Shown here: positions 1-38,200 of the stretch, one piece after another
Layout: every line of letters starts with the position of its first letter
How positions within the stretch are numbered: position 1 is the stretch's first letter
Assembly: GCF_002234675.1 (NCBI RefSeq)
Contig: NC_019859.2
Location: forward strand, 15,177,002 to 15,241,001
DNA length: 64,000 nucleotides
Direction: 5' to 3'
Source of the DNA: Oryzias latipes
Taxonomy: Eukaryota > Chordata > Actinopteri > Beloniformes > Adrianichthyidae
The notes under the pieces: generated by a model
Database searches by the model: none
Told to the model about the DNA's origin: nothing
Seen by the model: the letters and a program-made list of their open reading frames with translations, nothing else
Made by a program: the position numbers and the translations under genes

Positions 1-40
1 TTGTGATGCTGTTCTTGATGTTCATGTTTTCTTTTATACC
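1..40 (-). promoter_or_regulatory. Promoter of a further array gene lying off the left edge
   Basis: The minus strand has GGTATAAAAGAAAACATG with the box at 31-38, almost identical to the promoter of gene B (9776-9815). The gene body would lie to the left of position 1, on the minus strand; only the first few bases of its exon 1 are in view. Confidence 0.7.
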
Positions 41-620
41 TTCCCTGGATCAGATGTGTTGAGAAACTGTACTCTTTAAGACATCTTTACCTAGAAAGAG
101 GAGTGACTGAGGATTGTGGACACAAGTTGCACAAGCTTTAAAGGATTTGTTGCACCACCAATAAAGATATTATTTCTATAAGATCATACAAATGGATTAT
201 TTTCAGTCACTAATGGCTCACACCTTTCCTCATTAATAATATGCTGATGTAGAAGCATAATAATCCAAAAAAAAAACTCAGTTTTAGCATTGCGTATTAT
301 ATTTTCAAGGAATAATAAAATATTTCTGTCTTAAATAATGCCCAGTTTCCAAGAATTTATCCCTTTATGGAGGAATTTTCTCTCACATTTGGTGTCTATA
401 AAACATTACATTCAACATGACATACTGTTTTTTCATAGATTACATTTGGTTCAAATGTTCACATATTTGAATGTGATTTTTCTTACAAATTTTGGAATAT
501 AAAAGTAGCACTATGACACATGAGTTGAGTTTCTTGATTTCACCTAATTCAATAGTACAAAGTAAGAATTTTCCGGACAAAAGCAATGGAAGAAATTTTA
601 GATCTGCAAGCTTTGAGAAG
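1..620. repeat. Segmental duplicate of 9776-10430 (array promoter and upstream flank)
   Basis: The two stretches run side by side from the TATA box through ATGGATTAT(T/C)TTCAGTCAC, AATATGCTGATGTAGAAGCA and AGTAAG(G/A)ATTTT to about 610 and 10420, with small indels. This shows that gene B and the off-window gene are tandem duplicates. Confidence 0.85.
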
Positions 621-1800
621 CAGCCACACTGTCATGGTTTGAGTTTGTTTTGTCTTGGTTTTTGCTTTAGTTCCTGTTCTGTCTTGTTTGGTTCTGTTTC
701 CTGCTTTATTTTGTAAGGGTTCCTGTCTTGTGTTGTCTTGAGTTGTACTTCCTTGGTCCCCATCTGCCCTGATCGTGTTCACCTGTGTCTTGTCTGCCCT
801 GTCTGTACATACAGCGGGGAAAATAAGTATTGAACACGTCAACATTTCTCTCAAAAAACATATTTCTAATCGAGCTATTGATACGAAATTTTCACCAGAT
901 GTCGGCATCAACCCAAGTAATGCACACATAGAAAGAAATCCAAACATTTATGTCCATAAATGAAGTTATGTGTAATAAAGTGAAATGGCAAAGGGAATAA
1001 GTATTGAACACATGAAGAAAAGGAGGGGTAAAAAGGTCTGGCAAACCAAGAAAGCAGCTGGAGTTTGTCAGAATTCAGAAGGTTAACCTGCCCCCTATTA
1101 GTGCAAAGTAAGTTGACCAGGAAGCTGTGTGGAGAGAATGAATGACTGGTAAACAGAGCATAGAGAAAAAATGTCTGTCCTTCTAAACAAAGTATGCATG
1201 TGGCCGGTGTTGATGCAGCACCCTGAATCTCTCTCTTTTGTCATCCTTTTAGCTGCAACAAGAATGTTTCTTCCGTCATGGCTGGTTTAACAGTGGATAC
1301 TTAAGGAGCAGCATGAAGATTGGATGGACTATTTAATTGTTGATGTTATGTCTTTTCATCTAATTAACCAGTTACAACTTTTTTAGATTAATATATATTA
1401 AATATGCATTTTAAAACAAGTAGCATGACACCTTTTTGCCAATTCTTTGCCTGCAGACAGCCCATATTTACCCATAATGCCAGTTGTGACAAAGGCACAA
1501 CAGTCTGTGAAGTCTGAAGTTTTGTTTGCTCACCTTATGCACAACTCTTTCCTGAAAGTGGCTCAACAATAAGCTGGGTTTACTACACAGCTGTTGCTGA
1601 AGTTAAGAAATGTTCCTGGACGGACTTGCCCACCTTTGGGGATTGGAGTCTTATAAGCATAGGCTTCTTCACGTCATGTGTAGACTTATTTTTTATTTAA
1701 TGTAAATGTTGATTTGATTTGAAATAAATTTGATTTGAATGACCTGAAAATAAATTAAGAGTTGGCTCCTTTAAACAGTGACTTTCAGGTTTAACAGTAC
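560..1800. repeat. Segmental duplicate shared with 16030-16900
   Basis: Shared stretches include AAGCAATGGAAGAAATT, GAAGCTGTGTGGAGAGAATG, AAGTATGCATGTGGCCGGTG, CACAACTCTTTCCTGAA and GGCTCCTTT(A/G)AACAGTGA. The left copy carries a Tc1 end at about 803-1090 that the right copy lacks at that place. Confidence 0.75.
803..1090. mobile_element. Tc1-like transposon end fragment
   Basis: ACAGCGGGGAAAATAAGTAT followed by TGAACACGTCAACATTT and GAAATTTTCACCAGATGTCG is the terminal region of a Tc1-type element common in fish. No transposase is left. Confidence 0.65.
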
Positions 1801-1959
1801 AACACCCAGGTATCTAAATGTGTCCACAATCTCAATGTCTGAGCCCTGGATATTCACCGGTGAGTGTGATGGTGAGGACCTCCTGAAATCCAGAACCAGC
1901 TCCTTTTTTCTTCCTGGTGTTTAGCAGCAGGTGGTTACTTTCACACCAGCCCACATTTG

Positions 1960-2265
1960 ATTTTGTTGATTTATTTCAAGCATTGTAGTCAAAGCAATAA
2001 AGAATTTAGACATATTCATCAAACTCATTACAGAAATGATGAAATGCATAGATTAAAAAGACAGAAAATAAAACAAAAATGTCACTTAAATAACATTTGC
2101 TTAATTAAATACAGTGATCATTAACTGAAGTATAAGTAGAGCTTGATTTATTGCTTGAAGAGGAGTGGGAAGAAGCAAGCTTATATAATCCCACCCCTAC
2201 TGAGTTCATTCATTTGATAGTTTTACAGTGTTTTAAATCCGGTTGTAGATAGATTCTCTTGAAGT
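1960..2265 (-). mobile_element. 3' end fragment of the ORF1-bearing LINE family
   Basis: The minus strand shows GGGATTATATAAGCTTGCTT, CTTCCCACTCCTCTTCAAGC and a tail TTGAAATAAATCAACAAAAT, matching in order the 3' end of the element at 12948-14790 (GGAATTATATAAGTTCGCTT, TTGAAATAAACCATTTCAAA). Confidence 0.6.
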
Positions 2266-2439
2266 AACAAAATCCGGTACCTAGAAATGATTGATGATCT
2301 TCAGAAAACATTCATTCATGACTTCAGTAAACAGTAACGGTACCGATATGTAATAATAATTGATTATCATTAGAACACATGATAACATTAAACCAGAAAA
2401 TTATTGCTACACATTGCAGATCAAGTAAACAAAATCAAT

Positions 2440-2605
2440 AGCTTATGGATTGTAATTTAAACATTTCAGTAATCATTATTGCACATTACAATGTAAAACC
2501 CATTGGTTGTAATTAAACCAACCATTAACAGGACAACATGACAGTTTCATTTTAGCTGGGCAAAGCAACAAAATAAGAAAAGGATCACATACTTATTTGA
2601 TCAAC
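2440..2605. mobile_element. Tc1-like right-end fragment
   Basis: ACCAACCATTAACA followed by AAGAAAAGGATCACATACTT matches the right end of the Tc1 element at 18190-18270. The remainder of the element is absent. Confidence 0.45.
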
Positions 2606-4395
2606 CCCCACCCCCAAACACTCTCATCACTGCACACCACCCCCATCCACAGCCGTACCATCTCTGCCCCACACCTCCACCCCCCTTTGCCTCACTTCTG
2701 ATCAGGTGAGGAGGGAACTGAGGCGACTCAAGACCAGGAAAGCTGCAGGTCCAGACGGCATCGGACCTGGACTGCTCAGGGACTGTGCTGACCAGCTCTG
2801 TGAGGTGGTCACTTACATCTTCAACTTGAGCCTGAGTCTGGAGACGGTCCCAGCCCTGTGGAAGACCTCCTGTGTGGTTCCGGTTCCTAAGATGGCGCAC
2901 GCTAAGGAGCCAAACCATTACAGACCAGTAGCCCTGACCTCCCACCTGATGAAGACCATGGAGAGACTCATCCTCAGCCACCTTCGCTCAGTGGTCAGCA
3001 CCGCAACGGACCCACTGCAGTCTGCCTACAGGCCGAACATCGGGGTGGATGACGCTGTCATCTACCTGCTGCACCGGGCGTTGATCCATCTGGAGGACAC
3101 CGGAACCGCTGTGAGGGTCATGTTCTTTGACTTCTCCAGCACCTTCAACACCATACGGCCAGCTCTGCTAAGAGAGAAGCTGGAAGGGGCTGGAGTGGAC
3201 GGACGACTGACTGCATGGACGACCGACTACCTCACCAACAGACCACAGTATGTGAGGCTACACAACTGTGTGTCGGAGGTGGTGGTTTCCAGCACTGGTG
3301 CTCCTCAGGGGACGGTGCTCTCACCGTTCCTCTTCACCCTTCATACCTCGGACTTTACCTACAACACCGGCAGTTGTCACCTCCAGAAGTTCTCTGACGA
3401 CTCGGCCATTGTTGGCTGTGTGTCGGGGGGGAACGAGGTGGAGTACAGGTCAGTCATCAAGGACTGACCTGTACTCTGACTGACCTGTGTGAGCGTAATC
3501 ACCTGTGCTTGAACACCAGTAAAACAAAGGAGATGGTGATTGATTTCCGGAGGAGAACACCACAATTCACACCGATGAGCATCCAGGGCTCGGACATTGA
3601 GGTAGTGGACAGTTTTAAGTACCTGGGTGTTCACCTCAACAAGAAACTGGACTGGACTCAAAACACCGATGCCCTGTATTAGAAGGGCCAAAGTCGCCTC
3701 CACCGTTTGAGGAGACTGAGGTCCTTTGGAGTGTGCAGGCCTCTCTTAAGGACATTTTATGACTCTGTGGTGGCCTCTGTTATCCACTACGCCGTGGCCT
3801 GTTGGGGAGCAGGCAGCACAGACCGAGACAGGAAGAGACTTAACAAGCTGGTCAGGAGGGTCAGTTTTGTCCTGGGCTGCCCACTGGACTTTGTGGAGGA
3901 AGTGGGTGAAAGGAGGATGTTGGCCAAGTTAACATCCATCATGGACAACACCTCTCACCCACTACATCAGACAGTGGAGGCACTAAACAGCTCTTTCAGT
4001 GGCAGACTGTTACACCCCCCATGCAGGAAGGAACGGTTCCGCAGGTCATTCATCCCAACAGCTGTGAGATTGTACAATGTCACAGTTTAAATATGCATGT
4101 AAAAACCGGTAATCATACATCCTTAGCTCATCTGTATATTCTGTGTTTTTACTTTTTTATTTAATTTTATTATTAGGCATAACATATGTTATGTCGTAAT
4201 AGTGTACATAAGCTCTTACTTACTTTTTCTATTTTTGCACATTTTTGTATTTGTATACTTGCACATTTTGGAACACCCCTCACTTTTGCACATTGCTGTC
4301 ACTTTTCTCTGCTTTTTGGAACTGCTGTGACAATTAAATTTCCCCAATGTGGGATCAATAAAGAATATCTTATCTTATCTTATCTTACTACTGAC
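2605..4395 (+). mobile_element. L2-type LINE, 5'-truncated, with reverse transcriptase
   Basis: The reverse transcriptase reads across 2706-3467 (KAAGPDGIGPGLL, NHYRPVALTSHLMKTMERLI, FFDFSSTFNTI, STGAPQGTVLSPFLF, KFSDDSAI), where the catalytic pair is SDD rather than the usual ADD. A short tandem duplication at about 3447-3485 shifts the frame; the downstream part follows (SFKYLGVHL, then a stop near 3680 and RLHRLRRLRSFGV on to 4090). The 3' end is GTGGGATCAATAAAG and a TTATC microsatellite (4355-4390). The L2/CR1 clade is inferred from motifs and tail. Confidence 0.85.
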
Positions 4396-4399
4396 TATA

Positions 4400-4950
4400 G
4401 AGTGTGGTGTAATGGCCCCTCACAACAGAACTCAAACAGGTCAACCCCCGTTTGGGTGCATGTTCTATAAATCTTTGATTATTAAATCTTATGGTCTACT
4501 AAAGCCAATGCAGAAGATAAATCCAAATATTGCATATTTTCCTCCTTTGGTAACCTATATATGTCATTGAAAACTCTGTCAAGATGAAAGATAGTTTAGG
4601 GCATCTTTGTATCATTCAAATCTTTGTTTTAGTATAGCTGCAAACCACTTTGAGTTGGTTTCTGGTTTTATTAGTAGGAGATCAAATTATTTAGTCTATA
4701 TACATTACATTTATTCATATGGGTATATGTAAAAGACATTTAAGGTGAACAAAACCAAAGGCTTCTGAGAAATACAGAGATATGATGAGGATTTGAAAAG
4801 AAAGAAAAGCAGTTGTTTTCATTTTCATTTGCTGCATTTATTTAAATCTGTAAAGACATGAAGGTTGTTTCACTCAGTCAAGACAGCAACAAGTCAAAAA
4901 CATTGAAGTAGACATGTTTTCTTAATCACTTGTTGATGTATGCTTCCATC
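4400..4950. other. Intergenic, nothing recognised
   Basis: AT-rich sequence between the LINE tail and gene A. It contains only the AATAAA for gene A (about 4837-4842 on the minus strand). Confidence 0.5.
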
Positions 4951-4957
4951 CCAGACT

Positions 4958-5347
4958 TTATCTTCCAGCAATAAGTCGCTGTATGACGAGAGCAAGTATT
5001 TGAGTCAGAGTGGAGGTTGAAGCTGTTGTTGCAGTCGTTGTGGCCTTAAAGCAATCAGAAAAACGTCGATCCAAGTAAACCTTCAGGACTTTGTTAGAGC
5101 AAGGGTTGCAGTTTTGGACTAATTTATCAGATTTGAAAACACTCACCTCATTTGAGTTGGAGTTTGAGCTCGACCGAGCAACTCTCTGATGCTCCATCTG
5201 TTGAAAATTCAAAGTTTTTAGGGTCTATCCTACTCTGCATACCAAATCATAGCGTCCAGACATGTGACGATGTGAAACATTCTCACTTACAGGTTGAGCC
5301 AGAGTGAGGCTCAAGAGGCATCCAAGGACAAGTGCAAACTTCAGCAT
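4958..5347 (-). CDS. Array gene A: shortest small secreted SCPP-like protein
   Basis: Three coding exons in phase 0, 64 residues. Exon 5291-5347 encodes MLKFALVLGCLLSLTLAQP. Exon 5147-5197 encodes MEHQRVARSSSNSNSNE, ending in the S-N-E motif shared with odam. Exon 4958-5044 encodes ATTTATTASTST and a hydrophobic segment LTQILALVIQRLIAGR. After signal cleavage the peptide is only about 47 residues. Splice sites: GTAAGT and GTGAGT donors, AACAG and TTTAAG acceptors. This is the simplest form of the Thr-then-Leu subfamily and perhaps closest to its founder. Function unknown. Confidence 0.86.
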
Positions 5348-5537
5348 GGTTTCACACCTGGAAACAAACATCGAGACTTTATCAACAGATCAAAAATGTT
5401 AAGTTCAATAATAATAAAAAAATCACTGCAGCATCACAAAATATACTGAAACCAATCAATTGTGATTACTGTTGTGTCTTTGCTTCCTCAGCAGAAGATC
5501 TGGAACGTTGTGATGCTTCTCTGACTGCTGACCTTCT

Positions 5538-5546
5538 CTTTTATAT
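5538..5546 (-). promoter_or_regulatory. TATA box and exon 1 of array gene A
   Basis: Minus strand ATATAAAAGAGAAGGTC. The non-coding exon 1 runs to a donor at 5470 (CACAACA|GTAATC). The intron ends TTTCCAG before GTGTGAAACC and the ATG. Confidence 0.68.
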
Positions 5547-5559
5547 GATCAGAAAAACT

Positions 5560-6535
5560 GAGGTGTTGTGAAACTGCATTCTCTGGTAAATTCTGTGTAA
5601 AAAAACACTGATTGCTGATGGAAGCTGCACAGGATTATGGGGATTTGTACGTGCATGTAAACACACTGAAAAACAACGGTGTTGTCAATGATTTTAAACA
5701 TATAGCTCAGTCACAAGTTACTGAGCAATATATCTTTGTTTTAATAACAGAATTTAATGTATGTCACAATAGGTTTAGCCTTAACTTATTTAGAAATATG
5801 TTGTTATATACTTTATAGTTTTTGAGGAAAAATAAGTCTAAGAAAACAACATCAACATTCTACCCTCAGTCAAGAAATTAAAATAAACAATTGAATAAGA
5901 GATTTTAGGCAAATGTTCTGCTTTAAATTGCAAATCATTTGATAAAATATAGTGAAAAGCATCCAAATAAATTAACTCAAAACTGGCTTTTCCACCATCA
6001 AACACCCTGTGAAACATTTTTGTCAGACTGTGAGAGGATCCTATTATTAAAAAACCCACACATGCAACAGGAGGAGATGCAAACTCCACTCACAAAGAAA
6101 ACCATTAGTAAAGAGGAGAAACATCTGTGCCAGCCTGGATGTAAATTCTAATTAGTAACATTGTAACGTAATAACTGTTTATAGTTTAATATTATGAGTG
6201 GATTTCTACTTTAGCATCTATTCATATTTATCTGGTTTTATTGCAGCTTTAGAGAACCAACTCTTCTGAAAAAAGAAGGAATATTATATTTAGGATGTTG
6301 CTGCATCAAGTGAGTCAAGAAAAAGTTGAGTACGGTAATATAATTTTTACAAAAAATAGGGGAAAAAATTACAATTATGTAAAAACAAAACACAGATAGT
6401 TAACATTTATCAGTTTTTCTTTCAATAAATAGGTGTAAAAATGTGTGTTATAAAGTTTATTTTAAATTGGTTAAATGGTAAGTTTTTTGGGGGCAAAATA
6501 CAACAATTCACTTTTTAAATTAATTTCTGTATTTA
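5560..6535. other. Upstream flank of gene A
   Basis: The first 100 bp resemble the upstream block of other array genes (TGATGGAAGCTGCACAGGAT); the remainder is AT-rich with no frame or repeat recognised. Confidence 0.45.
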
Positions 6536-6539
6536 GGAA

Positions 6540-6790
6540 TTTCCCTGATATATTAGCGAGAAAAAAATTAACATCACCACAGAAAATACTGAAATAATGT
6601 CAAGTCCTTGTAGATTCATAAAAAGATCAGAGAATAACCTGTGATGTTGCTTAGAATCTTGACCTTTTGTTTTTAACCTTTGGAGGAGAAAACTTGTTGA
6701 GAAACTGCATTTACTTGGAAATCTTTTTTTACAAAGAGTACTTGTGATTAAAGACAAAAACTGCACAGGATTATAGGATTTACCACCACA
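6540..6790 (-). pseudogene. Orphan promoter, exon 1 and intron 1 relic of an array gene
   Basis: Minus strand contains GAGAAACTGCATTT-like upstream text in decayed form, a ruined TATA region (GTTAAAAACAAAAGGTC in place of GTATAAAAGAGAAGGTC), exon 1 text (GCAACATCACAGG, TGATCTTTTTATGAATCTAC) and the start of intron 1 (CAGTATTTTCTGTGGTGATG). No signal exon or later exon follows it to the left before gene A's own promoter. It is a decayed partial duplicate. Confidence 0.65.
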
Positions 6791-7049
6791 ATCAAAAACA
6801 ATTGATTTTGAAATAAAGAAAGAGGAATGAGTAATAATTGTGGTAATTCTGGAGAGAGTCTGTACTGTATTTTTGACACAATTAAAATAATTTGAACAAT
6901 TTTAATCTGTCTAAATGAGAAGTCAGCATTGTTTTTTTCTCTATTTTTGTGATGTAGTTTCTCAATATACCGGAGTTGATCACATCTGGATTCTTAGGAC
7001 ACATCACTCCTGTGTTTTTAGATGCTACTCTGCAAAAATACCTTGATTT

Positions 7050-9160: not shown

Positions 9161-9628
9161 TTATCTTGCTCTGTTGAGAAGTTGCTGGATGAGCAGAATC
9201 AGCTGGCTCAGTGATGGTGTAGTTGTTGCTCCTGCAACAGTTGTTGCTCCTGCAACAGTTGTTGTTGCAGTAGTGGTGGTTGCCTTGATAAAATCACAAA
9301 CATTGAAGTTAAACATTAAAACAGACGACTCTCACAGGACTTTGTTACAGGATGTCATTTAAAAGTTTACTCAGAACAGAAAACACTCACCTCATGTGAG
9401 TTCGACCCAGAGTGATGATGCCCATGTTTGGAACGAGCAAATCTCTGATGCTCCATCTTTAGAAACATCAAAAAAACAGTGAAATTATGTTTCTAATGTC
9501 ATGAAAAATCCTTTGTTTTATCATCAATTTTAGCTTCTTTCCATGAAACAGTTTGAAACAATCAGACTTACAGGTTGAGCCAGAGTGAGACTCAGGAGGC
9601 ATCCAAGCACCAGAGCTAACTTCAGCAT
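9161..9628 (-). CDS. Array gene B: His-rich small secreted SCPP-like protein
   Basis: Three coding exons in phase 0, 81 residues. Exon 9572-9628 encodes MLKLALVLGCLLSLTLAQP. Exon 9391-9456 encodes MEHQRFARSKHGHHHSG then SNSHE: a basic and histidine-rich start and an S-H-E end. Exon 9161-9283 encodes ATTTTATTT, two VAGATT repeats, a Pro, then the hydrophobic SLSQLILLIQQLL and NRAR. The layout of His/basic peptide followed by O-glycosylatable Thr tract is reminiscent of salivary histatins, which are also SCPPs, but the sequences do not align. A copy of this gene's promoter region lies at the left edge of the window. An AATAAA sits at 9005-9010. Confidence 0.86.
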
Positions 9629-11738: not shown

Positions 11739-12265
11739 TTAAGAAGTTGCTGAAGGAGTAGTAGTAGTCGGTGGTGTGGTTGTTGCAGCTGCAGTGGTAG
11801 TAGTTGCAGCTGCAGTGGTAGTAGTTGCAGCTGCAGTGGTAGTAGTTGCAGCTGCAGTGGTAGTACTTGCAGCTGCAGTGGTAGTACTTGCAGCTGCATT
11901 GGTAGTACTTGTTGCAGAGGTGGTTGCCTTAAAGAAAAAAGTCAATCAAGAAGCTGAAGACCCTGCATGACTTGTCTATGTTAGAAAGTACCAACCTCAT
12001 GTGAACTCGACCCAGAGTGGTGTTTGTGTTTGGAATGATGAGAAGGATGATGACCCTCCATCTGTGAAATGTAAAAAAAGAAAATTTAATAAGTGATGTG
12101 TTCATCTGCATTTACTCAAAGTACATGTTTTTTTTTGGAAAAAGTAAAAGAGACTGGTGTTTATCCTGGTCTACAAAGAACAAATGAAGGTGAAACAATC
12201 CCACTCACAGATTTAGCCAGAGTAAGGCTCAGGAGGCATTCAAGCACAAGTGCTATCTTCAGCAT
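11739..12265 (-). CDS. Array gene C: His-rich and Thr/Ala-repeat small secreted SCPP-like protein
   Basis: Three coding exons in phase 0, 103 residues. Exon 12209-12265 encodes MLKIALVLECLLSLTLAKS. Exon 11996-12061 encodes a histidine-rich stretch, MEGHHPSHHSKHKHHSG then SSSHE, eight His in 22 residues, with S-H-E as the phosphorylation motif. Exon 11739-11927 encodes 62 residues made of a seven-residue repeat (TTTTAAA and STTTAAA forms), then TPPTTTTPSATS and stop. The usual leucine-rich end is missing; the neighbouring reading frame just there reads QQLLKNAKK, so a length change in or after the repeat moved the frame. The donor after exon 2 (GTTGGT) is weaker than in sister genes. Histidine clusters suggest Zn or Cu binding by composition only. 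Confidence 0.82.
11775..11900 (-). repeat. 21-bp coding minisatellite (Thr4-Ala3 units)
   Basis: Plus-strand unit GCAGCTGCAGTGGTAGTAGTT (split here as GCAGCTGCAGTGGTAGTAGT plus T) repeats about five to six times almost without change, with a GTACTT variant in the copies at the right. It encodes the TTTTAAA repeats of gene C. Confidence 0.88.
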
Positions 12266-19990: not shown

Positions 19991-20413
19991 TTAATTTCGC
20001 CCCAGTAGGGCCAGCAGTTGAGCAATAATCTGGACTAATGATAGTGCAGTTGTTGTTGTTGTTGCTCCTGCAACTGTAGTTGTTGCAGTGGTGGTTCCCT
20101 TAAAAGAAAAGAAAAAGGTAAGACAAAATAAAATTTATATAAATGATTTGTAAGTTGTCAGGATAACAAAACACTTACCTCATTGGAGTTAGACCCAGAG
20201 TTGGAGTCCGAGCTGGAACGAGCCAATCTCTGCTGCTCCATCTGTAAAAAAAAAAAAAAAAAAATGTGTGATTTGAAGCTTGAGGTGTCTTTCCTGTTTC
20301 CCACAATCTAAGTATCGCTCCCTAGACATTTAATAACAAGACACAATCACACTTACAGGCTGAGCCAGAGTGAGGCTCAGGAGACATCCAAGCACAAGTG
20401 CTAACTTCAGCAT
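19991..20413 (-). CDS. Array gene D: small secreted SCPP-like protein, Thr tract then Leu segment
   Basis: Three coding exons in phase 0, 75 residues. Exon 20357-20413 encodes MLKLALVLGCLLSLTLAQP. Exon 20179-20241 encodes MEQQRLARSSSDSNSGSNSN plus a final Glu, rich in possible phosphoserines, with S-N-E at the end. Exon 19991-20098 encodes GTTTATTTVAGATTTTTA followed by a hydrophobic segment LSLVQIIAQLLALL and GRN. The last part could form an amphipathic helix. It lies 7.6 kb from the next array gene to the left, with transposon debris between. An AATAAA is present near 19876. Splice sites are GTAAGT donors with CAG and TTTTAAG acceptors. Confidence 0.86.
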
Positions 20414-21831: not shown

Positions 21832-22309
21832 TTCTTTAGCGCATTTCTGCTTTTGAGTATTTTGAACAAATCATTTGAACCAATATTCTTTTTATAGGCA
21901 TGGGCGTGGGTTTATAGCCAAAACGTGTGGAGGGTGTGCAGGTGATACATAAGTGCTCGTAAGATGCCTGTAGGATGCCCACACAAATTGTGCTCTGATT
22001 GGTTAAGTTCCCCATTTCTAACGGCCAGTCTGCACATAAAGTGCACACTTATCACTTGAACAGCGCTATTGGCGGTCAAAAAAAAAAAAGACAAATCTAT
22101 ACAACATACCTCCGTCTCACCTACCTCCTCCTTACTTACCTTGCCTACGTGTTCACACCAACCTGACCCCTGCATCATGCCCATTGACAAAAATGGACAT
22201 GAACATTTTCGTATTTCATTAAAAATCTGTGCCCCCCCACCCCGCATAGATTTGCCCATCTTTCACCTGTAGACAGTCCATAATAACCCATAGAGGCAGT
22301 TGTGACTAA

Positions 22310-22500
22310 GGCTTAAGTCTTTGCAGCTTCAGTAGTAGATCAGAAAAGTTCTTTTGATCCTGCTCTGAATGTTGACCTTCTCAATTATACTTTTAAATGA
22401 AAAAACTGTTAATAAACTAAATTGTTGAAGTCATCTCATAATAGAAGGAGCAGTGCCTAAAGTCACTAAAACAGAAGCTGCATAGGATTGTGACAGTATA
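22310..22500 (-). pseudogene. Second orphan promoter and exon 1 relic of an array gene
   Basis: Plus strand TCTTTGCAGCTTCAGTAGTA, GATCCTGCTCTGAATGTTGA and CCTTCTCAATTATACTTTT match the exon 1 and TATA region of gene D (20520-20590), with a degraded box. The upstream text GGAGCAGTGCCTAAAGTCAC also matches. No coding exon lies between it and gene D's promoter; transposon sequence abuts it on the left. Confidence 0.7.
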
Positions 22501-28462: not shown

Positions 28463-28911
28463 TTATGTTGCTGCCCTTGGAGTCGTGGTTGTTGCAGTGG
28501 TCGTAGTTGCAGTTGTAGTTGTTTGTTGCAGGAGAGCAAGGATGAGCTGGAGCAACACGTTATTTATGGAAGACGTGTTGGAGGACTTCATGTGGACGGA
28601 GACATTAACAGACAGAAAGAAAGAAAAGATTCACATGAACTGATGTTCATGAGCTCAAACTGAAGTGGACAAAGAAAACACTCACCTCATTAGAGTTGGA
28701 ACCAGAGCTTGAGCGGGCAAACCGCTGATGCTCCACCTATTAAAATAAACCAGATTTCATGTTTCACTTTAGTGTGACATGTAGATTATAATAGTAAAAG
28801 AAAGATTTCTGCAAACACAATCAAGTGCAGTGATAATAAGTTGGTCAAACTTACAGGTTCAGCCAGAATGAGGCTCAGGAGGCATCCAAGCACAATTGCT
28901 ACCTTCAGCAT
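28463..28911 (-). CDS. Array gene E: small secreted SCPP-like protein, Leu segment then Thr tract
   Basis: Three coding exons in phase 0, 76 residues. Exon 28855-28911 encodes the signal peptide and first residues MLKVAIVLGCLLSLILAEP. Exon 28686-28736 encodes VEHQRFARSSSGSNSNE, a basic start then a Ser/Asn run ending in the S-x-E motif. Exon 28463-28585 encodes SSNTSSINNV, a leucine-rich segment LLQLILALLQQ and a Thr-rich C-terminus ending PRAAT. NTS and NNV-type Asn residues give at least one N-glycosylation sequon (N-T-S). The acceptor before the last exon is ATGAAG, as in copies F and G. The secreted peptide is about 59 residues; role unknown. A TATA box lies at 29076-29083. Confidence 0.85.
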
Positions 28912-29075: not shown

Positions 29076-29083
29076 CTTATATA
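29076..29083 (-). promoter_or_regulatory. TATA box of array gene E
   Basis: Minus strand GTGTATATAAGAGAGGTC, about 165 bp upstream of the ATG. It is followed by a non-coding exon 1 (about 28990-29050) and an intron ending in CAG before the signal exon. Confidence 0.65.
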
Positions 29084-31015: not shown

Positions 31016-31019
31016 ATTC

Positions 31020-31095
31020 AATTAAATTCAATTTTATTTGTATAGCCCAAATTCACAACGACAGCCGTCTCGGAGGGCTTTCAATTCAATAAACT
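31020..31095 (+). repeat. Short interspersed repeat, ATTTTATTTGTATAGCCC type
   Basis: ATTCAATTTTATTTGTATAG, CCCAAATTCACAACGACAGC; the same text opens the longer copy at 35235-35560. It is a frequent fish repeat end; class not decided. Confidence 0.5.
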
Positions 31096-31129
31096 TTTAT
31101 TTAAAATGAGTCTAAAGAGTATTTAGTCA

Positions 31130-32180
31130 GCCACCAATTGTCCAAGTTTTCTCACTCTAAAAGATGAGAGAGGCATGTAATTTTCATCATAGGTGTACCC
31201 CAACTATGTGAGACAAAATGAGAAAATAAAATAGAGAAAATTACATTGTCTGATTTTAAAGAATTTATTTGTAAATTGTGGCAGGAAAATAAGTATTTGC
31301 TGCGACAGACTGGCAATCTGTCCAGGATGTTCCCTGCCTTCGCCCACCATTCTCTGGGGCTGGTTTTCAGCAAAGGAACCAGGACGACTGATCCGTGAAC
31401 AGATAAGAATGTGTTAGAGTGTGACAAATGTCACTATATGCTTTGTTTGGGAACTATTTTATTCAGTGCAAAGTTACGTGTCAGTATAAATAAAGGCAGA
31501 GCCTCCTGCCCCTTGTTCTTCATGGGTGTCTTAATGGCTTCTGGAAAAGTGTCTGCAGTCTCGTTTTTCACTGGGTAACCTGTAATATTCTGTGAAGATG
31601 TCTGTACCAGAGAGCACATGTGAAGGTTTGCGTGCAGCTCCAGAGCGGTCCGCTGCAGAAGAATCAACACAATGAATGGGGCAGAGTATCGTCAGATTTT
31701 GAGTGAAAACCTCCTTCCATCAGCAATGGCATTGAAGATGAAACGTGGCCAGGTCTTTGAGGACATCAACAATCCCAAACACACTGCCCGGGTAACAAAG
31801 GAGTGGTTTCGTAAGAAGCATTTCAGGGTCCTGGAGCCAGTCTCCAGATCTGAACCCCCTAGAAAAATCTTCGGAGGGAGTTGAAAGTCTGTGTTGCCCG
31901 GCGATAGCCCCAAAATATCACTGCTCCAGTGGAGATCTCCATGGCGGAATGGACCAAATTATGAGCAACAGTTTGTGAAAACCTTGTGAAGACTTACAGA
32001 AAATGTTTGACTGATGTCATTGCTAACAAACGGTATAAAACAAAGTATTGAGCTGAACTTTTGTTGCTGACCAAACACTTATTTTCCACCTTTATTTACC
32101 AATAATTGTTTTAAATATCAGACAATGTGATTTTCTGGATTTTTTTTCTCATTTTCTCTCTCATAGTTGAGGTATATCTT
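31130..32180 (+). mobile_element. Tc1-like transposon with long inverted ends, decayed
   Basis: Left end ACAAAATGAGAAAA...ATTACATTGTCTGA (about 31205-31256) is inverted at 32120-32170. Transposase fragment at about 31735-31855: [20 protein letters not shown] then [14 protein letters not shown]. The middle contains foreign sequence at about 31300-31680. Confidence 0.72.
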
Positions 32181-32349
32181 CTATGGGCTTCACTAATTGT
32201 ACAAGACATAAAATCAGTTATAAAGTATGTTGGATGCTTGCTTAACTAAACTAAAAATAACAGTCATTTAAATTTCATCTACACAACATGAACTATTGTA
32301 GGAATGATTTAGTCCAGGTCTCAGGCTCATATCAAACCACTGACACATT

Positions 32350-33190
32350 TGAAATGTTGTAGTGTTGGTGGGTTTATTTTTATAGCAACATGGTTTTAAA
32401 AAGAGGGGGGGGGGAGACTTAATTCAGAGTATTTTGCATCAGTGTTTTTATTTGACAAGAAAAATCCATAAAACATTGACTGTGGTGGAGAAAAAAGACT
32501 TGATCTTCATTTGTCAGACCATTTTACGTGCTTGGAGCTGGTGTGGCTACAGTCGTAGTTGCTGCAGCGGTTGTGGCTGCAGCCATTTGTTGTAGGAGAG
32601 CAAGAATCTGGAGCAACACCTCATAGATAGAAGATGTGTTGATGGACTTCACGTGGACGGAGACATTATCACCTCATTTGAGTTGGAACCAGAGTCAGAG
32701 CTGGAGCGGGCAAACCGCTGATGCTCCACCTATTAGAATACACCAGATTTCATGTCTTGGGTTTGTCTAAACTTAACTTTACTACAACAACAGAAAGCGT
32801 TGTGCAAAACTTAAACTTAACCTTAAAACCTAGCTCAGCCAGAATCAGGCTCAGTGTGCATCGATGCACAATTGCTACCTTCAGCAAGATCTTACCTGTT
32901 GAAAGAATTAATAAAAAAAATTAGGTCTGAAATCATGTCAGAAAAAATAAAATCGGTATAGTCAAGTCCTCACAGATGGTCAGAGAAGATCCTGGAGGTT
33001 TCTGCAGTGCTGAGCTGTTAGACTTCTCTCATAAACAAGAGCAGAGCAGTTAGGAAACTGCAACCATTGCAAAATCTTCCAGTGTAACACCCGGAACTAA
33101 TAGTTAGACAAACAATGATACACCTTCCACACAGTATTGCACGGATGTGTTTAACAAATTATGCAAAAACACTGTTGTTGCAAACATTGA
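32350..33190. repeat. Segmental duplicate of 28300-29260 (copy F unit)
   Basis: Partner block carrying pseudogene F, with intron 2 and part of intron 1 deleted relative to the E unit. Confidence 0.85.
32524..32901 (-). pseudogene. Array copy F: broken duplicate of the gene at 28463-28911
   Basis: Signal exon relic at about 32845-32901: the start ATG is now TTG, the sequence continues LKVAIV, then diverges, and the GTAAGT donor is gone. The second exon is intact in sequence at about 32679-32735 (VEHQRFARSSSDSGSNSNE). The last exon is also intact at 32524-32650 (SINTSSIYEVLLQILALLQQ, then an Ala/Thr tract ending APST and stop). The intron between these two exons has shrunk to about 26 bp, too short to splice; read through it, the frame meets a stop. 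The TATA box has decayed (TTTATGAG in place of TATATAAG). Flanks match the 28463-28911 gene closely, so this is a recent duplicate that died. Expression is unlikely. Confidence 0.82.
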
Positions 33191-33535
33191 TTAAAATATG
33201 TGAAAAATGCCACTAAGTCTTTGGTTTATTTGGGATTCTCAGCTCTGCCTTACAAGCCCATTAACCCTTATGTGGTGTTCATTTTTGTGTGTTTTCATTT
33301 TTTATCAAAAGAAAAATGATACAATTGATTAAGTTTTCAAACTCAGACTCACTGGCCTTGGCTCATTTTCTGTGAAGAACATATATCAGAATACATTTTT
33401 AATGACCACACACCGTATTGCCCCCCAACACATTTCTATATAAGATGTTCGGGTCCACTGGACCCGGGGCTAATAGAAGTGTGGAAATTGATGTTTTATG
33501 TACCTACACTCTGTCCTCCACCTGTCTGGGCCTGC

Positions 33536-33546
33536 TGTGTGTGTGT

Positions 33547-33581
<35 letters not shown>

Positions 33582-33590
33582 TGTGTGACC
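33536..33590. repeat. (GT)n microsatellite
   Basis: About 25 GT units with a few GG interruptions, inside the piggyBac-like element. Confidence 0.95.
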
Positions 33591-33857
33591 AGTGAGAAAG
33601 ACAGAGAGAGTGGCAGAGAGAGAAAGATTCACTGTAAATGTGAGTTCTGTTTTTGCACCTGCGGTTCCCGCACAAGGTTGCAACATTGTTAGAATAATTC
33701 AAGCATCAACTCTGTTTGCTCTCGTTCTCCCGCACATTTGACCATTTGACTTTCTTGCGGGAATCTTTAATATCTTGCTCTTTATCTGCTACAAATTGGA
33801 GGCGGGACACGTTAAATATAGCTTTGTCAGTGTGGTTTCTTATCACAACTGATCAAA

Positions 33858-34025
33858 ATGGCCAAAAGACTTTCTGCGCAGAGGGTCCTGGAATTGATTT
33901 TAGAAGAGAGAGACTTTTTTGATGATGATGTAGAGGGAGACGATTCAGAAGAGGAGGTTTCAGAATTAGAGGATCACATTTCTGAAAATTCAGAGTCTGA
34001 CAGTGACTCTGAAGAAAATGATTAG
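33858..34025 (+). pseudogene. N-terminal fragment of a piggyBac-like transposase
   Basis: An open frame of about 55 residues: MAKRLSAQRVLELILEERDF, then a run of acidic residues (DDDVEGDDSEEEVSE) and ENSESDSDSEEND, stop TAG. An acidic, Ser-rich N-terminus just inside the 5' end is usual for piggyBac-type transposases (PGBD group). The DDD catalytic core is absent. The stop lies where the SINE was inserted (target duplication TTAGATTG), so the frame may once have continued. Confidence 0.65.
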
Positions 34026-34026
34026 A

Positions 34027-34313
34027 TTGGGGTGGCCGTGGAGCAGCGGTAGGGCGGTCGACCCATGATCGTAAGATTGCAGGTTCAATTCCCGCCTTGC
34101 ACGCCCATGAGTCAAAGTGTCCTTGGGCAAGACACTGAACCCCACCTTGCCTCTGGTGGTGGGCGGGCGCCTGTGTTTGGCAGCGGAGCCACCACCAGGG
34201 TCTGAATGTGTGAGTGAATGTGTGTGTGACTGGGTGAATGGGTCTGTGACTATAAAGCGCTTTGTCCTTGTAGGAAGAAAGGCGCTATATAAGTATACGC
34301 CATTTACCATTTA
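34027..34313 (+). mobile_element. tRNA-derived SINE, full length, inserted in the piggyBac-like element
   Basis: It starts GGGGTGGCCGTGGAGCAGCG, with an A-box-like region, B-box GGTTCAATTCC at about 34082-34092, a body with AAGACACTGAACCCCACCTT and a 3' end AGGCGCTATATAAGTATACG, CCATTTACCA. The target duplication TTAGATTG flanks it. It is the best-preserved copy of the family also seen at 7265, 10660 and 62396. Confidence 0.88.
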
Positions 34314-35229
34314 GATTGAGCATCAGCCAGTTTCAAAACGAAGCCATCAGCACCCAGCCACAGGACCAGGCCGTCAGCAGCCAGGACCATGTGTTGTATA
34401 GACTAGTGGCTAGAAGGCCATGTGTTCAATGGGGCTGATGGGTTGTCTTGACTAATAGGTTTACTCTGTGTTCAGCTTGTGTTGTGCACCTGAATGGGTT
34501 CAGTTTCTGTGTTCAAATAAATAAAAGTCAGTAGTTTTGAAAACCCTTGCTTCACTTGAAAATTTGTTTCCACTCATATCTTGATTTTAAGTGATTTTCT
34601 TTATCACGTTTTAAATAATGAGTTATGAATGTGATCTAACAAAGGTAAAGGGCAAATATTAACCATATATACTGATTGTAGTTGGATGAGGTAAACATCT
34701 GTCGAGTATTTTAACATCAAAGTGTTTGATTGTGAGGCATTAAAAACCACAACATGCAACGGGTCCACCAGACCCACGAACACTGGCTGAGTAACAAAAA
34801 TATGAACACCACACAAGGGTTAAAGAAGACTTTGGTAGCTTCTTCCCCAATTCTTCAAATTGAGAAAATACACATCTAATATATATTTTTGCAGTTGAAG
34901 AGATTCATAAGAGTTTAAGGGTTTTTTGTATTTTATTCTACATTTTACACACCATTGACAATAGGACCCTTCAGAATGTTGTTTTGCTCCATATTTTGCC
35001 TCGATTGTAGATCAGCTAAGGTAATACTGTTTTCCAAATGATCTACTGTTTTTACTGTTGAGTATTTTCTTATAGCTACACATTGTACTTCAGATTTTTT
35101 TTAGTTTGCAGCTCAATTTTTGTGGCTGTTCTGTGCATGTCTGGATTCTTTTTCTAACTTTTAAAATACTTTGAAGACTCACACCAATAAAAACTGTGGT
35201 TTTGATGTTTAAACATGTTCGTGTGGCAT

Positions 35230-35560
35230 TTTTATCACAATTTAATTCAATTCAATTTTATTTGTATAGCCCAAAATCACAACAACAGTCGTCTCAATGG
35301 GCTTCGAAGTAAAACATGAACTTAAATGGATCATGAATACAAAGAGTTCAATAGGAAAATACTAAAATTAACTAACAAACTGACTAAGCTATGCTGGCAT
35401 CCCTGCCCTTAGACCCCCCTTCGCGGTAAGGAAAAACTCCTAAAAAAACGGATTCCGGAAAAAACGAAGAAACCTCAGGGGTGCCCACATGAAGGAGGGA
35501 TCCTCCCCCAGGACGGACAGGCGATTTACCAGAACTCTGAGAGAAGAATTAACTTATCTA
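35230..35560 (+). repeat. Interspersed repeat, ATTTTATTTGTATAGCCC type, longer copy
   Basis: It opens like 31020-31095 and continues through CCCTTCGCGGTAAGGAAAAA, CTCC and GAAACCTCAGGGGTGCCC, a conserved core of an abundant fish repeat. No reading frame was recognised. Confidence 0.6.
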
Positions 35561-35920
35561 ACGCTACAACTACTACCACAATGGAGGACATGTATAAAAA
35601 ATGCTTTTCTGGGTTTGCTTTTCAGATTTTTCTATAGAAATTCATTTTCTATATTTTGCATCTGTAGACTTTGTGCCATTTTAATTCTTGAAGCATTTAC
35701 AGAGCCTTTTGTAAGAAAAAGGTTTTACATGATCAACTCATGGTTAAGGTTTTGGAAAAAACAGGTATACAGTACACCTTTTTCAAGAAAGAAGGGTGTT
35801 TAACTATAGTTGGCTTTTATTCATAAGTTTTAGCTTTTTATTTATTCATTTACTCTTTTGCATTTTATTCAACATTTTACCCATGAAAACGTATAGAGTG
35901 TCTGATTGTTTATCTTACTT

Positions 35921-36166
35921 ACTTTGAGGGTGACTTAGCGTGATATGACTGCCACTGGCATTGCCAAAAAGAAATTTGCAGAGACAGAGACACTTGATTG
36001 GTTAGAATCTGGCCCAATCAGCAGCTGTTTGATGGCAGCTTGTCACGTCAAACCGAAACTTAACTCAGCAAAGATAGTAAAAAAGTGAGATGACACACAA
36101 CGCATGCCAATTTCCTTTTTGGCGATGCCAGTGGCAGTCATACCACGCTAAGTCACCCTCAAAGTA
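35921..36166. mobile_element. Palindromic MITE with about 60-bp arms
   Basis: Left arm ACTTTGAGGGTGACTTAGCG, TGATATGACTGCCACTGGCA, TTGCCAAAAAG is repeated inverted at 36104-36166 with about four differences. The spacer is about 125 bp. It would fold into a long hairpin if transcribed. Confidence 0.85.
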
Positions 36167-36419
36167 GTCAGCAAAATCAAAGATAAAACAAAAGCGAGAT
36201 TTGACACAGCGCACGCAAAAAAATGTGTTTTGCAAATGCAAAAAACTTTTTTGAAAGCAAAAAAAAAGTTGTTGAAAGCAAAAAAAATATATCAAAGCAT
36301 AATAATAAATTATTGAAAAGCAAATATTTAATATTTTCACCTGCAACTTAGAAAGTTTTGTGTGCAACTTAGAAAGTTTTGTGTGCAACGTGGTGGCAGA
36401 AATATCACTCCATAGGTTT

Positions 36420-36650
36420 CTGTTCATCTTTGTCGGGTCATCTGCTCTGTTGTGTCACCAGTTTGGTTCTCCCCATAGTTTTGTCATGTTTCAGTTTGTT
36501 TATTTAATTTTTATTTCCTTTCACCAAGCCCGGGCCCCTGCATTTTGGGTCCTCCACCACCAGTTCTTGACAAAATGTATGCAAACATAATTCATATAAA
36601 TAAAGTTTAGCCTCAAATACAAAATGGGTTTATACAATTATACACAACTT
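36420..36650 (+). repeat. Interspersed repeat end, shared with 19290-19460 and 50925-50995
   Basis: CCTGCATTTTGGGTCCTCCA, CCACCAGTTCTTGACA matches 19420-19460; AATAAAGTTTAGCCTCAAAT matches the end at about 50945-50970. Class unknown. Confidence 0.55.
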
Positions 36651-37380
36651 GTGTCTGATTCAAAACCTCAAAAGCATTCAAGTTGCATTGTCATTGATCA
36701 TGAGCATTTTACAATAAATACATTTTATTAATTTAATTTTTCTTGAATCCACCAATCCCTGAGTGTATTTTTTCTATATGGACCTAATCCATTCTTTTTA
36801 TGGTGTTTTGTTGTTATATCTGCATATACCTTTGTGGTTACTAAGTTATCAGGTCTAATGTTACATTCAAGCCTAAATAGAACAGTGTTGTAGCTGAAAT
36901 AGAAGAATCAGCAAATTAACTCCTTTATATGTATACATTTCATTACATTACTGCTTCTTAATTGGATTTTTTTAATTTCTTTGAGGAAAAAGGTGAGCTT
37001 GGGTTCATTGAATGCAATGAACAGGCACAGTATTAAACACCTACCCCTGGACTGTTGAATGACAAAGACCCCCTTTGTCTTGTTTTTATAACTTTGTTAA
37101 TTAAAAAGGACGTTTTTGGCTGTAGTTGGAGCTCCGTTCTGCTGTGCTCTTTTCATACATTTTTATATGTTACAACTTTTTTTTTTTAAGACAACCCAGC
37201 AGTTCCTTTAAAAGTATTTGTTTTGTTTCTTTGGTGTACTGTTGCTTAATGTTAAATCAATTATTTACATTTACAGTAATAGTTTTCCTATTTTCAAAAT
37301 ATAAAGATGTAGATGTTTTTTAAAGTATTTTTTATAGGAAACAAAAATGCACCAAATTACCAGACAAAACATGCTTTGCA
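36651..37380. other. Intergenic right of gene G's 3' end
   Basis: AT-rich; no frame or repeat recognised apart from the gene's polyadenylation region near 37390. Confidence 0.4.
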
Positions 37381-37516
37381 TTGAAATTATTTATTTGACA
37401 AATGACCAAAAAACTGTGACATTTTTCCAATCAAATGAAGATGAACAAAGAGTGCTCAATCTCTCTTAAAGGAACAGAATGATAATCATTTTAGAAAGAA
37501 ATCACAGATTTCCATT

Positions 37517-37620
37517 TTATGCAGTGGTGGCTGTGGTTGCAGTCGTGGCTGTAGTTGCAGTAGTGGCTGTAGTTGCAGTCGTGGCCGTGGTTGCAGTCGT
37601 AGTTGTTGCAGCGGTCGTAG
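37517..37620 (-). repeat. Thr-Thr-Ala coding repeat (9-18 bp units)
   Basis: Plus-strand units such as GTGGCTGTAGTTGCAGTC recur with small changes. Period 9 and 18 bp keeps the frame as Thr-Thr-Ala. It occupies the C-terminus of array gene G. Confidence 0.8.
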
Positions 37621-38029
37621 CTGTAGCATACTGTTGCAGCAGGTTGAGGAGGAGCTGAAGGAATGTGCTATCCAATGCTGGTCTAGTTGATGTAGTTGGT
37701 CTAGGAGCCTTCATATAGTGGACAACATTAGCAAACATGGATCAGGAAAACAATTCACATTGACGGATATTTTGAAGCTTTTTTTTAAAAGAGGAATAAC
37801 TCACCTCTCCAGATTGTGAACCGCCCCTGTTTGGATGGGACACCCCGTGGCCTCTCTGTAAAAACACAACCGTTTTTATGTTTTCATATTAGATTAGCCT
37901 AAATTATTTAACAACAATGACAGAAAGAAATGTACAACTAAATTCTGCTGCAATAATAATAAGTTTTTTCAAACTTACAGCCTGAGTGAGGCTCAAGAGG
38001 CATCCAAGCACAAGTGCTACCTTTAGCAT
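37517..38029 (-). CDS. Array gene G: small secreted SCPP-like protein with Thr-Thr-Ala repeats
   Basis: Three coding exons in phase 0, 97 residues. Exon 37979-38029 encodes the signal peptide MLKVALVLGCLLSLTQA. Exon 37805-37855 encodes RGHGVSHPNRGGSQSGE, ending in Ser-Gly-Glu, an S-x-E site. Exon 37517-37708 encodes a Pro/Thr start (APRPTTSTRPALD), a leucine-rich segment (FLQLLLNLLQQ) and a C-terminal run of about 30 residues of alternating Thr-Thr-Ala. It is the copy nearest odam and the most diverged: its signal exon is two codons shorter and its second exon has lost the EHQR motif. The Thr tract is a likely target for mucin-type O-glycosylation. No function is known to me. A TATA box at 38193-38200 and an AATAAA near 37390 frame the gene. 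Confidence 0.82.
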
Positions 38030-38192
38030 TGTTGATTTAATGATGACACCTGTCAAACAAATGAGAAATTTTAGGAAGATAAAAAACATATTAAAATGTT
38101 TACATAATGAAAGTCAAGTCCTCACAGTTTGAACAAATGGTTAGAGAAGATCCTGGAAGTTTCTGCAGTGCTGAAGTGGCTGTTAGACCTCT

Positions 38193-38200
38193 CTTATATA
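38193..38200 (-). promoter_or_regulatory. TATA box of array gene G
   Basis: Minus strand GTATATAAGAGAGGTC, the same block as in the gene at 28463-28911. A non-coding exon 1 follows at about 38120-38170 (GATCTTCTCTAACCA...). Confidence 0.65.

What the first reader, a model, noticed from the sequence alone, without database searches (positions are those of the whole stretch)
1..38200. Tandem array of tiny Thr/Ala-rich secreted genes grown from the SCPP locus
Six readable genes, one pseudogene, two orphan promoter relics and one off-edge promoter share a signal peptide close to MLKLALVLGCLLSLTLAQP, a short S-x-E exon and a Thr/Leu last exon, all minus strand and phase 0, next to odam. Gene structure and motif place them in the SCPP family (seen plus family knowledge). 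The mature products, about 45-85 residues, match no SCPP that I can name. A lineage-specific mucosal, skin or tooth-surface peptide family is inferred.
Basis: partly seen in the sequence, partly recalled or inferred. Interest (0 to 1): 0.9.

Follow-up and report, generated by a model that had tools for sequence, protein, structure and literature searches.

The report
Medaka scpp3 tooth-epithelium gene array
A row of eleven small secreted-protein genes (plus one dead copy) beside the medaka tooth-protein gene odam is real; it most likely is the medaka set of the known fish gene scpp3, whose likely medaka counterparts had been labelled non-coding RNA and left out of a medaka tooth study.

Summary
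In detail: six intact minus-strand genes, one pseudogene, two promoter relics and one edge promoter. The array runs 25 kb past the window edge: 11 intact genes and 1 pseudogene in 64 kb. Two DNA queries from array members, of the whole 734-Mb genome, hit only this block. Published medaka primers fix species and map: scpp5 - array - odam - scpp1. Relatives occur in many percomorph fishes, unnamed or misnamed; one sub-type groups strongly and two moderately with other fishes, so the family is not medaka-specific. Position, copy habit and literature point to scpp3; a medaka study set aside matching loci as 'ncRNA'. Coding exons look constrained. I add two exon-3 features: an R-[FLV]-A-R convertase-type site and an alternating (S-x)n-E serine ladder. 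Inferred mechanism: oral/dental epithelium secretes a short phospho-mucin-like peptide onto teeth or mucosa. No named scpp3 sequence could be compared, and no expression data were available. Known kind; interest moderate.

The parts
1..115 (-). promoter / 5' UTR end of an intact gene (copy A) whose ATG is off the window at position -147 and whose 87-aa frame ends at -632
4958..5347 (-). intact gene W05, 64 aa; exons 5347-5291, 5197-5147, 5044-4958; same protein as off-window copy B
6565..6721 (-). orphan promoter relic (68-71% to three array promoters), no signal exon downstream
9161..9628 (-). intact gene W09, 81 aa; exons 9628-9572, 9456-9391, 9283-9161; same protein as copy D, one 6-residue repeat unit shorter than A and C
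11739..12265 (-). intact gene W12, 103 aa; exons 12265-12209, 12061-11996, 11927-11739; last exon is a 21-bp repeat coding Thr/Ala, no Leu-rich stretch, no R-x-x-R site
19991..20413 (-). intact gene W20, 75 aa; exons 20413-20357, 20241-20179, 20098-19991; six-Ser ladder; best match of an Oryzias melastigma protein
22297..22418 (-). orphan promoter relic (up to 85% to W20 promoter), no signal exon downstream
28463..28911 (-). intact gene W28, 76 aa; exons 28911-28855, 28736-28686, 28585-28463; Leu-rich stretch before the Thr tract; groups with two goodeid proteins (87/84)
32524..32887 (-). pseudogene of the W28 kind: start codon lost, exon-2 donor lost, intron 2 reduced to about 26 bases (by eye)
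37517..38029 (-). intact gene W38, 97 aa; exons 38029-37979, 37855-37805, 37708-37517; long A-T-T repeat in the last exon
47797..48786 (-). 5' part of the flanking gene odam (= medaka scpp2): signal exon 48786-48727 and following P/Q-rich exons (exon ends by eye); primers of Morita et al. match here

Best explanation
[quoted passage not shown] SHOWN: eleven intact genes of three coding exons and one pseudogene in one 64-kb block between scpp5 and odam; signs of coding constraint; recent block duplications; relatives across percomorph fishes. INFERRED: each gene makes a secreted protein. Signal peptidase cuts near residue 17. In most copies a furin-type convertase then cuts after R-[FLV]-A-R, so that the mature chain starts with, or close to, the serine ladder. 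Fam20C-type kinase phosphorylates the S-x-E serine next to the exon end and can then walk backwards through S-x-pS, giving 2-6 alternating phosphoserines that bind Ca2+ or apatite. The Thr/Ala tract is O-glycosylated (mucin-like), and the short Leu-rich stretch drives self-association or membrane contact. Oral, pharyngeal and dental epithelium would secrete these peptides onto erupting teeth and the overlying mucosa, as a statherin/mucin-like coating. Many copies raise the dose and vary the tail. (Confidence is for identity and general class; the step-by-step mechanism alone I put near 0.4.)
For: Structure, splice borders and promoters. One array genome-wide at the sensitivity of two DNA queries. 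Map scpp5 - array - odam - scpp1: 10 of 12 published medaka primers match exactly, one over its first 17 bases, one not. Constraint: pooled pN/pS 0.32 (exon 2, 21 pairs) and 0.48 (exon 3, 10 pairs); recent copies A-W09 0 of 246 coding against 43 of 885 non-coding differences, p = 2e-5; four further pairs p = 1.7e-6 to 0.046. Relatives; tree. Ser ladder 96 of 119 Ser against 21.9 +/- 5.3 shuffled. R-x-x-R before S/G: 4 of 7 medaka types (8 of 11 genes) and 22 of 23 relatives that show exon 3. Literature: scpp3 varies in number and is tooth-linked (PMC13367325); two in parrotfish, eight in gilthead bream, six in stickleback, pufferfish scpp3a/b in oral and pharyngeal epithelium (PMC10932694); pufferfish scpp3a/b resemble four medaka 'ncRNA' loci (PMC10568847); scpp3b1, scpp3b3 and odam share a scaffold in a catfish (PMC9596584).
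Against: No protein named scpp3 appeared among the hits of three protein searches, so the name rests on position, gene habit and published statements. The coordinates of the four medaka ncRNA loci could not be checked. Morita et al. [quoted passage not shown] Papers differ on the cell layer of pufferfish scpp3: inner dental epithelium, outer dental epithelium, oral and pharyngeal epithelium. Three of seven medaka types (W12, W38, E) lack the R-x-x-R site and E lacks any S-x-E. Serine alternation could come from slippage of a 6-bp unit. The Leu-rich stretch beat its shuffles for amphipathicity in only 4 of 12 cases at 5%. Recent copies may owe part of their exon identity to gene conversion: intron 2 is also nearly identical, and against the gene body alone B-W05 is not significant (p = 0.11). 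In one search, pN exceeds pS in 2 of 21 exon-2 pairs and 1 of 10 exon-3 pairs. No RNA or protein data for medaka were available.
Confidence: 0.75

Rival explanations
1. The loci are spliced non-coding RNAs, as the medaka annotation quoted by Morita et al. says; the short frames are incidental.
For: PMC10568847 reports pufferfish scpp3a/b similar to four medaka loci annotated ncRNA and left them out. The frames are short (64-135 aa), and intron 2 is as conserved as the exons between recent copies.
Against: Frames open across three phase-0 exons in all 11 copies; changes mostly silent between old copies; recent copies have fewer differences in coding than in adjacent sequence in 5 of 5 pairs (p = 1.7e-6 to 0.046; against the gene body alone significant in 2 of the 3 pairs tested); protein-level relatives in many other fishes.
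Confidence: 0.04
2. A new, lineage-specific peptide family of medaka mucosa, grown from an SCPP gene.
For: Mature tails differ greatly between copies, block duplications at 90-97% identity look recent, and most fish relatives are unnamed or misnamed. W38 and W12 are not placed with any other fish in the tree.
Against: Type I (D, B, W20) groups with notothenioid proteins (99/98, the only starred one of the three), W28 with goodeid proteins (87/84), E with other goodeid proteins (86/79); scpp3 is described as having three or more copies in most actinopterygians.
Confidence: 0.06
3. SCPP paralogues of another named gene (for example scpplpq4, scpp16 or scpp9), or a mixture in which the outer copies E and W38 are not scpp3.
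For: E has no S-x-E and an unlike exon 3; five other SCPP-like signal exons, scpp5 included, lie between E and the left edge of the fetched stretch.
Against: Array members share a recognisable MLK..LVLGCLLSL-type signal exon, the neighbours score far lower; E and W38 match other array members by DNA over the signal exon or more; variable copy number is said to set scpp3 apart from other SCPP genes.
Confidence: 0.12
4. True mucins or glue/antifreeze-type Thr/Ala repeat proteins without SCPP ancestry ('integumentary mucin C.1', Pfam New_glue).
For: Annotators named relatives so; weak Pfam New_glue/MUCL1 matches below cut-off.
Against: Those matches are low-complexity and miss the curated cut-offs; exon plan, S-x-E exon end and position are SCPP-like; the last exon is Pro-rich in some percid relatives with the same first exons, so the Thr tract does not define the family.
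Confidence: 0.03

Closest known systems
scpp3 (scpp3a/3b/3c of pufferfish, scpp3a and scpp3b series of catfish, six copies in stickleback)
   Same: SCPP cluster next to odam, variable multi-copy number; published expression in oral, pharyngeal and dental epithelium
   Different: No named sequence could be aligned here. Eleven intact copies exceed the 2-8 that I saw stated for single species; the Thr/Ala tails, ladder and convertase-type site were not mentioned in the passages that I read.
odam and other P/Q-rich SCPPs in the same cluster
   Same: signal exon ending at a phase-0 GTAAG donor, an S-N-E at the end of the next exon (odam: ASNSNE; by eye), minus strand
   Different: Array members have only three coding exons and Thr/Ala rather than Pro/Gln tails
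Mammalian salivary SCPP-derived proteins statherin, histatins and MUC7 (recalled; of the MUC7 paper PMC4997351 only the start of the abstract seen in the listing)
   Same: small secreted SCPP-cluster products; phosphoserine start (statherin), His-rich stretch (histatins), variable repeat number within an exon (MUC7)
   Different: No sequence orthology claimed or tested; this is a likeness of how they may work
'integumentary mucin C.1-like', 'cell wall protein DAN4', 'glutelin-2-like' fish database entries
   Same: these are relatives of the array products
   Different: the names probably come from low-complexity similarity and say nothing of ancestry

Membership tests
SCPP family | signal peptide on its own small exon, after an untranslated first exon | tested here: met
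   ATG and signal peptide in one 51-57 base exon ending at a GTRAG donor in 11 of 11 intact copies. The untranslated first exon is read by eye from an acceptor-like CAG just before the ATG and a TATA motif further up; its donor was not placed
SCPP family | all coding-region introns phase 0 | tested here: met
   for 10 copies; copy E corrected
SCPP family | S-x-E phosphorylation motif at the end of exon 3 | tested here: met
   6 of 7 medaka types (10 of 11 genes); not met in copy E
SCPP family | location in the sparcl1-scpp cluster | tested here: met
   scpp5, odam (scpp2) and scpp1 primers flank the array
SCPP family | secreted phosphoprotein that binds calcium | not testable with these tools
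   needs biochemistry
scpp3 | position beside odam in the cluster | tested here: met
   published linkage of scpp3b1, scpp3b3 and odam in a catfish
scpp3 | multi-copy with variable number | tested here: met
   11 intact + 1 pseudogene; published 2, 6, 8 in other fishes
scpp3 | sequence similarity to a named scpp3 protein | not tested
   no protein so named appeared in the three protein searches, whose candidate lists are limited
scpp3 | alignment of pufferfish scpp3a/b to these medaka loci | not testable with these tools
   reported for four medaka LOC numbers, whose coordinates I could not see
scpp3 | expression in dental / oral epithelium | not testable with these tools
   published for other fishes; in medaka 'not observed' and the loci not studied
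Mucin (integumentary mucin C.1) | recognised mucin-associated domain or above-threshold family match | tested here: not met
   Pfam for 6 of 7 medaka types (W12 not scanned): only sub-threshold matches; NCBIfam for 2 types: none
Non-coding RNA | no constraint on the reading frame | tested here: not met

The most novel reading that the evidence does not exclude
The fish scpp3 array is a teleost counterpart, arrived at independently, of the mammalian salivary SCPP set: convertase-activated peptides whose mature N-terminus is a self-priming phosphoserine ladder that grips tooth mineral, followed by a mucin-like glycan tract, with copy number and tail repeats turning over fast for oral and gill surface defence. 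A pufferfish scpp3b rise in gill on Vibrio infection (PMC8841829, one passage) fits.
Probability: 0.28. Interest if true: 0.65.

Novelty: new member of a known kind. Interest (0 to 1): 0.42.

Why it matters
scpp3 is one of three genes (scpp5, scpp3, odam) reported in all toothed teleosts surveyed and absent in toothless syngnathids, yet in medaka, a main genetic model, the likely scpp3 loci were set aside as non-coding RNA, and an earlier survey counted scpp3a-c as absent from medaka (PMC4895719). Exact gene models for eleven copies make knock-out, in situ and proteomic tests possible. The shared convertase-type site and serine ladder give a testable mechanism for what Scpp3 proteins do, and the block shows how fast a small secreted protein family remodels its tail while holding its first two coding exons.

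Tried and rejected
Tried: (1) Amphipathic-helix reading of the Leu-rich stretch: only 4 of 12 helices beat their shuffles at 5%, so I do not claim an antimicrobial-type helix. (2) Antifreeze-glycoprotein likeness: tails are (A-T-T)n or (T4-A3)n, not regular T-A-A; set aside as likeness of composition only (by eye, recall). (3) Pfam and NCBIfam: nothing above cut-off for the array products scanned or for odam; odam's name rests on the primers. (4) Recent-copy identity as proof of selection: weakened because intron 2 is equally conserved. All five pairs were tested against introns plus flanks, three of them also against the gene body. The older-copy test uses 21 and 10 pairs that are not independent; in exon 3 W38 and E were left out as not alignable, and W12 is an outlier. 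(5) Rows dropped in the ladder count: P0012 and P0013 (no S-x-E; they would add none), P0020 and P0025 (no exon 3 seen); P0014, P0015 and P0017 entered once, as were P0023 and P0024; copy E counted as 0 and not shuffled. Shuffles ignore relatedness. (6) In one search the R-x-x-R count was 24 of 32 rows (20 of 25 relatives, 4 of 7 medaka types); P0021 and P0022 run on through intron 1 and carry the site further on (read), P0020 and P0025 show no exon 3, hence 22 of 23. (7) A protein search of the own genome and the DNA query with copy E did not complete, so 'one array' rests on two DNA queries, each with 12 of 12 candidates scored; the tool calls such counts lower bounds. (8) The tree used 7 medaka types and 19 of 25 relatives (P0019-P0022, P0024, P0025 left out); 14 of 23 inner branches are open, 5 starred, and its bootstrap had not settled. 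By pairwise score the goodeid rows P0012 and P0013 fit W38 better than E, while the tree joins them to E. (9) Weak hits are in the relatives list: P0022 to P0025 have E-values of 0.001 to 7.5.
Full report
OBSERVATION. The window is C1:15177002-15241001 of a 734-Mb, 25-contig genome. Reading the DNA and building models (copy E corrected) gives six intact genes in the window. Each has a TATA motif, an apparent intron in the 5' UTR (by eye, donor not placed), a 51-57 base signal exon, a 51-66 base exon 3 and a last exon of 87-192 bases, both introns phase 0, then a poly-A signal. One copy (32887-32524) is a pseudogene. Two promoter relics and one edge promoter are as stated.

EXTENT. A DNA search of the whole genome with the W20 promoter and signal exon, and another with the W28 promoter and signal exon, hit 12 places each, all within C1:15151858-15215217. 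One search gives the 11 intact genes and one promoter relic; one search gives the 11 intact genes and the pseudogene. The tool scores only the best candidates, so more distant copies could be missed. Five intact genes lie left of the window, and the promoter at the window edge belongs to one of them. The block holds recent duplications, for example 4.5 kb at 97% and matches at a 9.8-kb step that join W05-like and W09-like copies. Copies A and C carry one more VAGATT unit in the tail than D and W09.

PLACE AND SPECIES. Primers printed for medaka scpp genes (PMC10568847, section 6) match this stretch: of the 12 for scpp1, scpp2 and scpp5, 10 exactly, one over its first 17 bases, one not. They put scpp5 about 41 kb left of the window, odam (scpp2) at 48.2-48.8 kb and scpp1 at 67.8-69.9 kb. 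The genome is therefore medaka (Oryzias latipes) or very close; that it is the Hd-rR assembly is recalled from its size. A scan for hydrophobic signal exons with a phase-0 donor in 164 kb returned the 11 intact array members, odam, scpp5, scpp1, one more at 64196, one chance-looking hit at 290, and four more SCPP-like signal exons to the left.

RELATIVES. Three protein searches (with E-value limits of 1, 0.1 and 10) gave 25 proteins with this signal peptide (read); the weakest, P0025, has E = 7.5. Twenty-two come from named fishes: notothenioids, Oryzias melastigma, a killifish and goodeids, a grouper, turbot and soles, snakehead, percids, croakers and a goby. Database names are 'hypothetical' or 'uncharacterized', 'integumentary mucin C.1', 'cell wall protein DAN4', 'glutelin-2-like' and the like; none is scpp3. 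In a tree of 26 rows medaka D, B and W20 join O. melastigma and two notothenioids (99/98), W28 joins two goodeids (87/84) and E joins two others (86/79) (14 of 23 inner branches open; six relatives left out). Only the first of these is starred; W38 and W12 are not placed. At least type I, and probably two more sub-types, therefore predate medaka.

CODING CONSTRAINT. Across seven medaka types pooled pN/pS is 0.32 for exon 2 (21 pairs, 2 with pN above pS); across five alignable types it is 0.48 for exon 3 (10 pairs, 1 with pN above pS; W12 an outlier) (pairs not independent). Between recent copies coding exons differ less than introns plus flanks in 5 of 5 pairs: A-W09 0 of 246 against 43 of 885 (p = 2e-5), D-W09 p = 1.7e-6, C-D p = 0.0045, B-W05 0 of 195 against 20 of 866 (p = 0.017), A-C p = 0.046; the pairs share copies. 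Against the gene body alone, three pairs were tested: A-W09 p = 0.0003, D-W09 p = 0.0001, B-W05 p = 0.11. Gene conversion may add to this, since intron 2 is also nearly identical. On balance the frames behave as protein-coding.

WHAT THE PROTEINS LOOK LIKE. After the signal peptide comes a short basic stretch that ends in R-[FLV]-A-R before Ser (or Gly): 4 of 7 medaka types (8 of 11 genes) and 22 of 23 relatives that show exon 3 (in one relative it reads R-V-E-R). This has the form of a furin-type site (recalled consensus R-x-x-R). Then comes a serine ladder that alternates with other residues and ends in Glu at the exon end: 96 of 119 serines in 25 exon-3 strings lie in it, against 21.9 +/- 5.3 in shuffles, 0 of 5000 reaching it; for six medaka types 22 against 5.0 +/- 2.6, 0 of 5000. 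FAM20C targets S-x-E/pS (PMC8348777, start of the abstract in the listing), so one Glu could prime the whole ladder. Two goodeid rows without S-x-E were left out of that count, and copy E has none. The last exon has a Thr/Ala tract and a Leu-rich stretch, in either order; W12 lacks the latter. Some percid relatives keep exons 2-3 but have Pro-rich tails.

COMPARISON WITH WHAT IS KNOWN. Kawasaki 2026 (PMC13367325; abstract, sections 5, 6 part 1 of 2, 12, 16 and passages read; [quoted passage not shown] The parrotfish paper gives 2 and 8 copies in two fishes, 6 in sticklebacks, and oral/pharyngeal epithelium expression in pufferfish (PMC10932694, passages); other papers say outer or inner dental epithelium. 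Morita et al. (PMC10568847; abstract, sections 6, 11, 28 and passages) state that scpp3 or ambn expression was not observed, that pufferfish scpp3a/b resemble four medaka ncRNA loci, and that these were not considered. Liu et al. counted scpp3a-c as absent in medaka (PMC4895719, passages). Kawasaki's supplementary table may already list medaka scpp3 copies; I could not see it. The array therefore most likely is scpp3. The convertase-type site and serine ladder were not mentioned in the passages that I read; a search for the family name with furin listed 4 papers, and one for scpp3 alone listed 8, none on this point by title.

MECHANISM AND STANDING. Shown: gene anatomy, array, signs of constraint, relatives, ladder and site as sequence patterns. 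Inferred: secretion, cleavage, phosphorylation, glycosylation, tissue and role. The best reading is a secreted phospho-mucin-like peptide set of oral/dental epithelium that coats teeth and mucosa. It works like statherin/MUC7 in outline (recalled), without being a member of those genes. The direct comparison with a named scpp3 protein remains to be done.

Noticed in passing
window 57341-58168 (-): Single-exon ORF, Ala/Gly/Gln-rich after a hydrophobic start, between odam and the sparcl1-like exon; [quoted passage not shown] ORF).
   Followed up: partly
window 53261-53465: 9-bp repeats that read PQMGQMAQM on the minus strand; candidate scpp9a exon, by position only.
   Followed up: no
window 62890-63894 (-): Long acidic Glu/Ser-rich exon between odam and scpp1, likely sparcl1; a signal exon at 64196 fits. 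Name partly recalled.
   Followed up: no
C1:15131028, 15139950, 15145726, 15148900 (-), left of the window: Four further SCPP-like signal exons besides scpp5, with P/Q-rich ORFs near some of them; candidates for ambn, lpq4, scpp7 or scpp16, not named here.
   Followed up: no
window 45554-46228 (+), 42856-43736 (-): ORFs that look like reverse-transcriptase remnants of non-LTR elements between the array and odam (by eye).
   Followed up: no
P0011 (Channa argus): Database model fuses an E/W38-like protein with a second SCPP-like unit whose end (DMTALLQLLIARLAAGK) best matches the medaka B/W05 tail in the 164-kb region (score 38, next 24); the annotation may join two neighbouring genes.
   Followed up: partly
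window 11782-11911 and 37520-37626: Coding tandem repeats (21-bp and 9/18-bp units) in the last exons of W12 and W38; may vary in length between medaka strains.
   Followed up: no
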